NCBI GenBank assembly: GCA_000403415.2
Contig: KE159682.1
Span: forward strand, 1-47,618
Length of the DNA: 47,618 nucleotides
From: Firmicutes bacterium M10-2
Lineage (GTDB): Bacteria > Bacillota_I > Bacilli_A > Erysipelotrichales > Erysipelotrichaceae
Direction: 5' to 3'
In this document: in pieces, positions 42,827 through 47,618 of the stretch
Layout: every line of letters begins with the position of its first letter
Position numbering within the stretch: the stretch's first letter is position 1
Notes under the pieces: model-generated
What the model was told of the DNA's origin: nothing
What the model saw: only the letters and a program-made list of their open reading frames with translations
Database searches by the model: none
Made by a program: the position numbers and the translations under genes

Positions 42827-42852
42827 AAAAAAGCCCTAAAAAGGGCTTTTTC
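42827..42852. repeat. Target duplication, left copy (terminator hairpin)
   Basis: This 26-base sequence is the same as 43044-43069. It is a terminator: AAAAAGCCC and GGGCTTTTT pair around TAAAAA-type loop bases. It borders the left end of the 191-base element. The matching copy on the other side indicates that the whole hairpin was duplicated on insertion. Confidence 0.85.
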
Positions 42853-43043
42853 CAGGCTGTTGACAAAGTCGATTTTTCAAATCGGCTTTGTCACAGCTTT
42901 TTATTTTTCTCCCACAAATGAATAAAAAAAGAGCAATTTGAGGTATTTAAGTACCTAATATTACTCTTTTTTTAGACCTTTTTACCCACTTTTATTTTAT
43001 TGAAATTTAATTTTTTCAAAATAGGTAGTTTGTCAACACTCTG
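42853..43043. mobile_element. MITE-like element, copy 1 (191 bases)
   Basis: The element starts CAGGCTGTTGACAAA and ends with the imperfect inverted copy (reverse complement CAGAGTGTTGACAAA, 13 of 15 matching). It codes for no protein. It contains three hairpins: 42862-42892 (14 pairs, next to the left end), 42924-42973 (A/T-rich terminator-like stem around AGGTA/TACCT), and a weaker one near 43000-43020. It reads as identical to 46395-46585. The position is between the rplL terminator and the ABC gene. The small size, inverted ends and flanking repeats fit a non-autonomous transposable element; the mobilising transposase is not in the window. Confidence 0.85.
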
Positions 43044-43069
43044 AAAAAAGCCCTAAAAAGGGCTTTTTC
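43044..43069 (-). terminator. rplJ-rplL terminator, target duplication right copy
   Basis: This 26-base intrinsic terminator (GCCC/GGGC stem with A and T runs) lies 19 bases after the rplL stop. The same sequence stands at 42827-42852, on the other side of the mobile element. Confidence 0.9.
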
Positions 43070-45937: not shown

Positions 45938-46354
45938 CTAATCCCAATAATCGTTGAATTCATCCGTTTTGAAAAAATCATCATAATCATGATCATAGTA
46001 TGGCTCGTATGAATTTCCAAACGAATACGCCGAATATCTCAACATTTGCACTGTCGAATATACGCCCGATCCAAAAGTATAAAACCCTAAAACAACAGCG
46101 CAAACGCTGAGCACCAAAATCGAAATCATCTTTTTTGTCAATTCAAATTCTTTCCAAATCAAGACTAGAGCAATCACAGCGCACACTAAAGCAATAAACC
46201 CTAAAATAAACCCATGCCATGTTCCGATCACAGCAAATACGATCGACACGATCGATAAGATCAAAGAGATCAGCCACAATTTTCCTTTTTTCTCATTTAA
46301 AGGGCGATCTTCAACATTTTGCGATGGAATTTTCGGAATATCTGGTTGTTTCAT
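45938..46354 (-). CDS. Small membrane protein of unknown function
   Basis: I do not recognise this protein of 138 residues. After a polar N terminus of about 25 residues, hydrophobic segments lie near 27-45, 48-66 and 76-98. The C terminus is strongly acidic and aromatic (YYDHDYDDFFKTDEF). It is the first gene of a pair with the Sel1-like protein, read away from the kinase gene. The mobile-element copy 2 sits about 40 bases upstream, so its promoter may have been changed by the insertion. Confidence 0.75.
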   Translation of the reverse strand: MKQPDIPKIPSQNVEDRPLNEKKGKLWLISLILSIVSIVFAVIGTWHGFILGFIALVCAVIALVLIWKEFELTKKMISILVLSVCAVVLGFYTFGSGVYSTVQMLRYSAYSFGNSYEPYYDHDYDDFFKTDEFNDYWD

Positions 46355-46372: not shown

Positions 46373-46394
46373 AAATGAATTATACCATTCATTT
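46373..46394. repeat. Target duplication, left copy (22-base hairpin)
   Basis: This 22-base palindrome (AAATGAA and TTCATTT arms) is identical to 46586-46607 and borders the left end of the second 191-base element. Confidence 0.88.
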
Positions 46395-46585
46395 CAGGCT
46401 GTTGACAAAGTCGATTTTTCAAATCGGCTTTGTCACAGCTTTTTATTTTTCTCCCACAAATGAATAAAAAAAGAGCAATTTGAGGTATTTAAGTACCTAA
46501 TATTACTCTTTTTTTAGACCTTTTTACCCACTTTTATTTTATTGAAATTTAATTTTTTCAAAATAGGTAGTTTGTCAACACTCTG
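46395..46585. mobile_element. MITE-like element, copy 2 (191 bases)
   Basis: This copy reads base for base the same as 42853-43043, in the same orientation. It has the same inverted ends and the same hairpins (46404-46434 and 46466-46515). It sits in the divergent gap between the small membrane protein gene and the kinase gene and is flanked by an exact 22-base duplication. Complete identity suggests both insertions are recent, or that they are kept the same by gene conversion. Confidence 0.87.
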
Positions 46586-46607
46586 AAATGAATTATACCA
46601 TTCATTT
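46586..46607. repeat. Target duplication, right copy (22-base hairpin)
   Basis: The exact copy of 46373-46394, directly after the right inverted end of the element. Confidence 0.88.
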
Positions 46608-46645
46608 TTGCTTTTCTACAATTTATTGCATGATACAATAGTCCC

Positions 46646-47482
46646 ATGAAACAAGAACAACTTCAAAAATGGCTTTCTCAAAAAACTAAGCAATCTTTCT
46701 CTTTGGAAAAAAACCATCTTGGATTAAGCAATGACACCTATATCTGCCGCACAGAACACGAAACCTATTTTATTCGCACCCCACGATTCAATCATGAATT
46801 ATTAGATGTCCGCTTTCAAGACGAAAAACAAATTCTAGATCTCGTAAAAGAACTTGACGTTCCTCTCGTGTATTTCGATATCCATCTGGGCATCAAGATT
46901 ACTCGGCAAATCCCCGATGCCATGACCTATCAAATGTGCAAATTACCGGAAAAAGCCCAAAAAGTCGGATCGATACTAAAAAAGCTTCATCAAACCAAGT
47001 CGGTGGATTTTTATTTCGATCCATTCAAAAAACTTTCTTCTTACCGCATGAAAGTCACTTCTTTTTTTATCCAATTTCCAAAAGAAGAAAAAATTGTGGA
47101 GGCGGTCAAAAAACTGTACACGCCGAACACTTTATGCCACAACGATGTGGTTGACGGAAATCTATTGTTTACGAACAATCATTTATACTTAATTGATTAT
47201 GAATACGCCAGTATGAATGATTTTCGGTTTGACCTCGCTAGTTTCTTAAGCGAAAACAATATTAAAGACAAAAAAGAACGAGATTCGTTTTTCGAAGGAT
47301 ACGGAATATCCGATCCGCAATTAAAACAGGAAGTTCTCTTGTTCGAATGTTTTGAGGATATCTTATGGGGCTATTGGGCCATGATGCTTTATGAATCAAG
47401 CAAACAGGAAATCTACAAGACAATCGCAAAAGAAAAAGAAGCGCATTATCAAAAAATTTTAAGTCAAGCGATACCGGATTAA
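46646..47482 (+). CDS. Choline/aminoglycoside kinase-like phosphotransferase
   Basis: This protein of 278 residues has the protein-kinase-like fold of choline kinases (LicA type). The catalytic loop is CHNDVVDGNLL with His165, Asn166 and Asp167, and the metal motif is LIDYEYA (Asp184, Glu186), followed by MNDFRFDLA. The N-terminal nucleotide-binding lobe is less well conserved. LicA-type enzymes phosphorylate choline for surface decoration, but ethanolamine, other amino alcohols or sugars are possible. The gene stands alone on the plus strand, with an insertion in its upstream region and a terminator after its stop. Confidence 0.83.
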   Translation: MKQEQLQKWLSQKTKQSFSLEKNHLGLSNDTYICRTEHETYFIRTPRFNHELLDVRFQDEKQILDLVKELDVPLVYFDIHLGIKITRQIPDAMTYQMCKLPEKAQKVGSILKKLHQTKSVDFYFDPFKKLSSYRMKVTSFFIQFPKEEKIVEAVKKLYTPNTLCHNDVVDGNLLFTNNHLYLIDYEYASMNDFRFDLASFLSENNIKDKKERDSFFEGYGISDPQLKQEVLLFECFEDILWGYWAMMLYESSKQEIYKTIAKEKEAHYQKILSQAIPD

Positions 47483-47505: not shown

Positions 47506-47526
47506 AAACCTTCATAATGAAGGTTT
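47506..47526 (+). terminator. Terminator of the kinase gene
   Basis: A perfect 21-base palindrome (AAACCTTCAT, A, ATGAAGGTTT) with A residues before it lies about 25 bases after the kinase stop. Its T-run is cut short because a mobile-element end starts directly after it. Confidence 0.8.
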
Positions 47527-47618
47527 CAGACTGTTGACAAACGGGCGGTATTCTTGAAGTAAGAATGCTGCCCGTTTTTATTTTTCTATTTTCACGACTC
47601 CAATTCATACTTTTTCTT
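47527..47618. mobile_element. Partial third element with the same end sequence
   Basis: The first 15 bases, CAGACTGTTGACAAA, match the element end of the two complete copies except for one base. A hairpin follows at the same offset (arms AAACGGGCGGTATTCTT and AAGAATGCTGCCCGTTT, two G-U pairs) and then the shared TTTTTATTTTTCT. The rest differs from copies 1 and 2 and runs off the window. It could be a divergent small element or the end of a full insertion sequence carrying the transposase. Confidence 0.65.

What the first reader, a model, noticed from the sequence alone, without database searches (positions are those of the whole stretch)
46373..46607. Second identical copy, inserted in a divergent promoter region with a 22-base hairpin duplication
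The copy reads as identical to the first over 191 bases yet has a different target of different length (22 instead of 26). The target is again a palindrome. A length that follows the hairpin instead of a fixed stagger suggests that cleavage is set by hairpin structure. The insertion sits about 40 bases from both divergent genes and brings a terminator-like stem with it, so it may insulate or change their expression.
Basis: partly seen in the sequence, partly recalled or inferred. Interest (0 to 1): 0.75.

Follow-up and report, generated by a model that had tools for sequence, protein, structure and literature searches.

The report
Mobile element that duplicates DNA hairpins
A 191-base non-coding mobile element, present 59 times in this bacterium's genome, jumps almost only into hairpin-forming DNA and duplicates the hairpin, so the length of its duplication follows the hairpin rather than a fixed enzyme stagger.

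Summary
Window 46395-46585 is a 191-bp element, identical to 42853-43043, flanked by an exact 22-bp palindromic duplication; copy 1 has 26 bp. It is a MITE with 59 copies in this genome (56 identical). A 1646-bp IS with matching ends (CAGACTGTTGACAAA) and a 476-aa IS1182-family DDE transposase is the likely engine; one copy starts in the window at 47527. Across 62 insertions the duplication is 18-32 bp, centred exactly on a hairpin dyad in 54, and ends within 1 nt of the hairpin foot in 42 (20 expected by permutation). Relatives in other genera, including an ISEfa7-like element, do the same (19-35 bp). The best mechanism is strand transfer to the two opposite 5' feet of an extruded cruciform; that step is inferred. 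IS1182-family targeting of palindromes is published, but the studied case, IS1272, deletes the hairpin; duplication was only a hypothetical pathway in the papers I could read. At this site the hairpin is the -10 region of the leftward gene, and the element's end supplies a new -35 (TTGTCA-18-TATAAT). Effects on expression are untested.

The parts
46373..46394 (.). left copy of the 22-bp target hairpin AAATGAAT-TATACC-ATTCATTT (target-site duplication)
46395..46585 (+). 191-bp MITE, copy 2, ends CAGGCTGTTGACAAA / TTTGTCAACACTCTG
   Evidence: 59 copies in the genome, 56 identical
46395..46409 (+). left terminal inverted repeat CAGGCTGTTGACAAA
46571..46585 (-). right terminal inverted repeat CAGAGTGTTGACAAA (on minus strand)
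46396..46441 (+). left-end hairpin followed by a T run, terminator-like, inward-facing
   Evidence: same shape in homologues from other genera
46465..46515 (.). internal A-tract/T-tract hairpin, bidirectional terminator-like
   Evidence: element fold z -7.9; self-complementary match
46586..46607 (.). right copy of the 22-bp target hairpin
46379..46408 (-). predicted hybrid promoter for the leftward gene: TTGTCA (from the element's end) - 18 - TATAAT with extended TG (from the target hairpin)
   Evidence: -10 region conserved in sister species
42827..42852 (.). left 26-bp duplication of copy 1 (hairpin downstream of rplL)
42853..43043 (+). 191-bp MITE, copy 1
43044..43069 (.). right 26-bp duplication of copy 1
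47506..47526 (.). 21-bp target hairpin AAACCTTCATAATGAAGGTTT of an autonomous IS copy
47527..47618 (-). transposase-distal end of an IS1182-family IS (CAGACTGTTGACAAACGGG...), running past the window end into a scaffold gap

Best explanation
The feature is a MITE of the IS1182 family, moved in trans by the IS1182-family DDE transposase that the same genome encodes (shown: shared ends, shared target habit, open transposase frames; inferred: that this transposase moves it). The machinery chooses targets by hairpin-forming symmetry, mostly intrinsic terminators, not by sequence (shown statistically). [quoted passage not shown] There they lie side by side at the four-way junction whatever the arm length. 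Gap repair then leaves one whole hairpin on each side, so duplication length equals hairpin length (pattern shown; cruciform intermediate inferred). The host keeps an intact terminator or hairpin on both sides, which should make insertions mild (inference). At this site the hairpin is the -10 region of the leftward gene, which after insertion gets a -35 from the element's end (predicted).
For: 59 copies, 56 identical. Partner IS of 1645-1646 bp with CAGACTGTTGACAAA at both ends and an NCBIfam NF033551 IS1182 transposase, 399 bits against a cut-off of 270. Its own copies carry 20-26 bp hairpin duplications. Duplications are centred exactly on the dyad in 54/62; score and centring meet the criterion in 90% against 0.6% at random places. 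Ends follow the foot better than permuted lengths do; where cuts lie inside the stem, the outer pairs are A-T in 55/58. Relatives: 16 loci with 19-31 bp and six copies in one genome (G010) with 19, 19, 20, 21, 25 and 35 bp, all hairpins. Partial duplications at L015 and L033 (3' arm only) and L035 (about 5' arm plus loop) end at or within 2 nt of the foot or the loop junction. The transposase model has the RNase H-like DDE fold nearest Tn5, Z 14.9. Joined flanks with a single hairpin align to the unoccupied site in a sister species.
Against: No experiment. MITE and IS share only about 13-14 of 15 terminal bases and no internal sequence, and a second IS1182-family transposase (542 aa) exists in the genome. 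Sixteen sites are cut 2-7 bp inside the maximal stem. Six MITE copies lack whole-hairpin duplications; two of these sit in rearrangements with another IS, and at one (L012) the hairpin itself is not better than shuffles (p 0.25). Partial duplications could be later deletions. Cruciform extrusion of short AT-rich arms in vivo is not shown.
Confidence: 0.8

Rival explanations
1. The transposase dimer reads a two-fold symmetric B-form target with a flexible spacer and cuts at its ends; no cruciform is extruded.
For: Symmetric targets are common for dimeric enzymes; targets are centred on the dyad.
Against: No shared target sequence beyond A at the first and T at the last base (49/62 and 48/62); lengths from 18 to 35 bp in steps of one would put the two cuts at every helical phase.
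Confidence: 0.15
2. The target is a hairpin on single-stranded DNA, for example at the lagging strand or in transcription-exposed DNA of terminators, not a double cruciform.
For: Most targets lie next to gene ends as terminators do; single-strand hairpins are used by IS200/IS605 elements (general knowledge).
Against: A duplication of the whole hairpin needs attack on both strands; the transposase is an RNase H-like DDE enzyme, not HUH.
Confidence: 0.2
3. Insertion is random with an ordinary duplication; only terminator insertions survive selection.
For: Insertions are mostly in gaps downstream of genes.
Against: Survival cannot make the duplication coincide with the dyad or its length follow the hairpin; this site lies in a promoter region between divergent genes.
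Confidence: 0.03
4. The flanking palindromes are part of the element or were acquired after insertion.
For: Palindromes abut nearly every copy.
Against: They differ between copies yet are identical on the two sides of each copy; at site 2 one copy aligns to the unoccupied region of a sister species.
Confidence: 0.02

Closest known systems
IS1272 / TnSha1 (IS1182 family; PMC5678879, PMC4923244)
   Same: IS1182-family transposase; targets are stem-loops of no fixed sequence, often terminators, 21-85 bp in size.
   Different: IS1272 and TnSha1 delete or replace the stem-loop and make no target duplication. Here the stem-loop is duplicated, which PMC5678879 Fig. 13 drew only as hypothetical pathway b.
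ISEfa7-like elements (IS1182 family, Enterococcus)
   Same: Ends CAGACTGTAGACAAA, transposase 44-45% identical; a copy in E. raffinosus has a 22-bp hairpin duplication.
   Different: Autonomous IS on plasmids; the E. faecium copies examined lack a matching duplication.
ISCfr1-related IS1182 elements (Proteobacteria; copy examined in P. putida)
   Same: IS1182 family, flanked by palindrome halves (TGGCCGAT / ATCGGCCA).
   Different: About 26-27% identity, different ends, no duplication at the copy examined.
MITEs of ISMac2 (IS1182 family, Methanosarcina acetivorans; PMC3852290)
   Same: 160-169 bp non-autonomous derivatives of an IS1182-family element.
   Different: Tabulated there with short (4 bp) or no direct repeats, as I read the table.

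Membership tests
IS1182 family (partner IS) | IS1182-family transposase model above curated cut-off | tested here: met
   NF033551 399 bits, cut-off 270; PF05598 and PF13751
IS1182 family (partner IS) | single transposase ORF in an element of about 1.3-1.9 kb with terminal inverted repeats | tested here: met
   1645-1646 bp, one 476-aa frame, CAGACTGTTGACAAA at both ends
IS1182 family (partner IS) | some members target palindromes | tested here: met
   literature statement via PMC5678879 and PMC4923244
MITE of this IS | short, non-coding, multicopy, ends like those of an autonomous partner, same target duplication type | tested here: met
   191 bp, 59 copies, 13-14 of 15 terminal bases shared with the IS, same hairpin duplications
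MITE of this IS | mobilised in trans by the partner transposase | not testable with these tools
   needs a transposition assay
IS1272-type stem-loop replacement | target stem-loop lost, no duplication | tested here: not met
   hairpin duplicated at 53 of 59 MITE copies and 8 IS copies
IS200/IS605-type single-strand hairpin transposition | HUH transposase, no target duplication | tested here: not met
   DDE transposase and duplications

The most novel reading that the evidence does not exclude
The transposase is a structure-specific strand transferase for four-way (cruciform) junctions: both attacks fall on the opposite 5' feet of the target's hairpins, so target-duplication length is set by the target's secondary structure and not by the synapse. 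Rare attacks at the loop junction give arm-only or loop-only duplications.
Probability: 0.55. Interest if true: 0.72.

Novelty: new variant of a known kind. Interest (0 to 1): 0.58.

Why it matters
Most DDE transposases give a near-constant duplication length because the two attack points are a fixed distance apart in the transpososome (general knowledge). Here the length varies from 18 to 35 bp with the target's secondary structure, at more than 80 sites in several genera. That makes the published but hypothetical stem-loop duplication pathway directly testable, and offers an in vivo probe for which palindromes extrude. It also suggests how such elements can fill terminators without breaking them.

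Tried and rejected
Rfam search of the window: no RNA family at the element. PDB sequence search with the transposase: nothing. Genus search for the MITE: not found in the two sister species held; G001 also gave no rplL or kinase, so it is uninformative. The Siguier 2014 review is not held, so the ISfinder view of IS1182 direct repeats could not be checked; I recall a wide listed range there, which is memory only. Covariation counting on the MITE alignment was not pursued because the homologues are few and misaligned at the left hairpin. Copy L012 as a loop-only duplication: hairpin not better than shuffles, left as tentative. Same-species empty alleles could not be obtained; the sister species' unoccupied sites were used instead.

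Full report
OBSERVATION. The stretch 46373-46607 reads 22 + 191 + 22 bp, exactly as described. The 191 bp are identical to 42853-43043. The two duplications differ in sequence and length (22 and 26 bp) and both are hairpins.

COPY NUMBER. The same genome (G000, 2.41 Mb, 22 contigs) holds 59 copies: 56 are identical over 191 bp, two are 189 bp and identical to each other, and one is interrupted by a gap of Ns. The identity points to a recent burst (inference). The element has ends CAGGCTGTTGACAAA and CAGAGTGTTGACAAA and folds strongly (z -7.9). Its left end is a hairpin with a T run and its middle an A-tract/T-tract hairpin. Homologues with about 70-80% identity and similar ends occur in other genera of the family; two of these genomes give complete copies with hairpin duplications.

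PARTNER. A scan for the end motif finds elements with CAGACTGTTGACAAA at both ends. Intact ones are 1645-1646 bp with one 476-aa frame. That protein is an IS1182-family transposase by curated model (399 bits, cut-off 270), with PF05598, PF01609 and PF13751. Its predicted structure (pLDDT 79.8) is nearest Tn5 transposase (Z 14.9) and other RNase H-like DDE enzymes. One copy begins inside the window at 47527 after the hairpin AAACCTTCATAATGAAGGTTT; its interior is a scaffold gap. A second IS1182-family transposase of 542 aa is also present, so the assignment of the MITE to the first rests on its ends and its target habit.

TARGET RULE. Of 70 elements located, 62 have an exact duplication of 18-32 bp (53 MITE, 8 IS, one gap-containing composite). 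Its centre falls exactly on the hairpin dyad in 54 and within 0.5 bp in 59. Requiring a hairpin score of 16 and centring within 0.5 bp, 90% of sites pass, against 0.06% of shuffled sequences and 0.6% of random places in the same loci. The duplication ends within 1 nt of the hairpin foot in 42/62; permuting lengths among sites gives 19.8 +/- 3.3, never 42 in 20,000. In the 16 sites cut two or more pairs inside the maximal stem, 55 of 58 outer pairs are A-T, as in the A- and T-tracts that flank terminators. There is no shared target sequence beyond a common first A and last T.

EXCEPTIONS. Six MITE copies have no whole-hairpin duplication. L009 and L081 sit where another IS and a MITE-bounded composite have rearranged the flanks. 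L015 and L033 duplicate only the 3' arm, and L035 roughly the 5' arm plus loop, so their ends lie at or within 2 nt of the foot or the loop junction. L012 would be a loop duplication, but its AT-rich hairpin is no better than shuffles. Later deletion of part of one copy explains L015 and L033 as well.

RELATIVES. Sixteen elements with roughly 35-59% identical transposases (Erysipelotrichaceae and other Bacillota, an uncultured bacterium, an ISEfa7-like element of E. raffinosus and one in S. simulans) carry 19-31 bp duplications; 15 are centred within 0.5 bp of the dyad. Six copies in one genome (G010) carry 19, 19, 20, 21, 25 and 35 bp, all hairpins. The habit is therefore a property of this branch, not of one genome.

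THIS SITE. Of the insertions whose two neighbours could be called, 17 lie in convergent and 28 in same-direction gaps, four in divergent ones (ORF calls are mechanical). This copy is one of the four. The target hairpin contains the leftward gene's extended -10 (TGGTATAAT on the minus strand). Joining the flanks with one hairpin aligns well with the unoccupied region of a sister species, where the -10 is conserved (TGATATAAT). After insertion the element's end places TTGTCA 18 bp upstream of that -10, 11 of 12 consensus matches; the unoccupied arrangement has no such -35 by inspection. The predicted effect is a new hybrid promoter for the small protein at 45938-46354, with a terminator-like stem upstream. 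The rightward gene, an APH/choline-kinase-like protein, keeps its own -10-like TGATACAAT just before its ATG and outside the duplication. The expression effects are predictions only; in the shuffle control, 1.5 promoter-like sites are expected in this region.

MECHANISM. A DDE enzyme joins each 3' end of the element to one target strand; the bases between the two joints become the duplication (general knowledge). Here the joints are the 5' foot of the hairpin on each strand. In linear DNA these are 18-35 bp apart at varying helical phase; in an extruded cruciform they are adjacent at the four-way junction whatever the arm length. This is the simplest account of a variable, exactly centred duplication. 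It is pathway b of the model in PMC5678879, proposed there as an alternative to the IS1272 case in which the stem-loop is replaced. Shown: the sequence pattern. Inferred: the cruciform, and the enzyme responsible.

KNOWN OR NEW. IS1182-family targeting of palindromes is published (PMC4923244, PMC5678879), and a copy related to ISCfr1 sits between palindrome halves without duplication. In nine literature searches of the open library I found no data set showing whole-hairpin duplication; subscription reviews and ISfinder could not be read. I therefore rate it a new variant of a known kind, with a real chance that ISfinder curators have noted long palindromic repeats for some members.

Noticed in passing
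window 47506-47618 (and contig to 49760): Start of an autonomous IS1182-family IS copy flanked by a 21-bp hairpin duplication; the interior is a 2050-N scaffold gap.
   Followed up: yes
L080 189-2317 (C16:231788-233916): A 2129-bp unit bounded by MITE ends and flanked by a perfect 32-bp hairpin duplication looks like a MITE-bounded composite that moved as one piece; a 10-N gap lies in its left MITE.
   Followed up: partly
L067, L068, L069, L070: A second IS1182-family transposase (542 aa where intact; 533 and 436 aa in broken or gapped copies) in the same genome; near it the motif GGGGCTGTAACGAATAGGTGATTT recurs and abuts MITE ends in C16. Its own ends and target habit were not worked out.
   Followed up: partly
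window 46631-46648: The kinase-like gene has an extended -10-like TGATACAAT ending about 6 nt before its ATG and no visible ribosome site, so its mRNA may be leaderless; a similar layout is seen in the sister species (L156).
   Followed up: no
L072 190-2401 (C1:356089-358300): An element with MITE right ends at both sides in inverted orientation, a 2030-N gap inside and a 23-bp hairpin duplication; its content is unknown.
   Followed up: no
L084 215-1859 (IS ends): Both ends of the IS carry terminator-like hairpins at or just inside the terminal repeat, possibly shielding the transposase gene from outside transcription.
   Followed up: no
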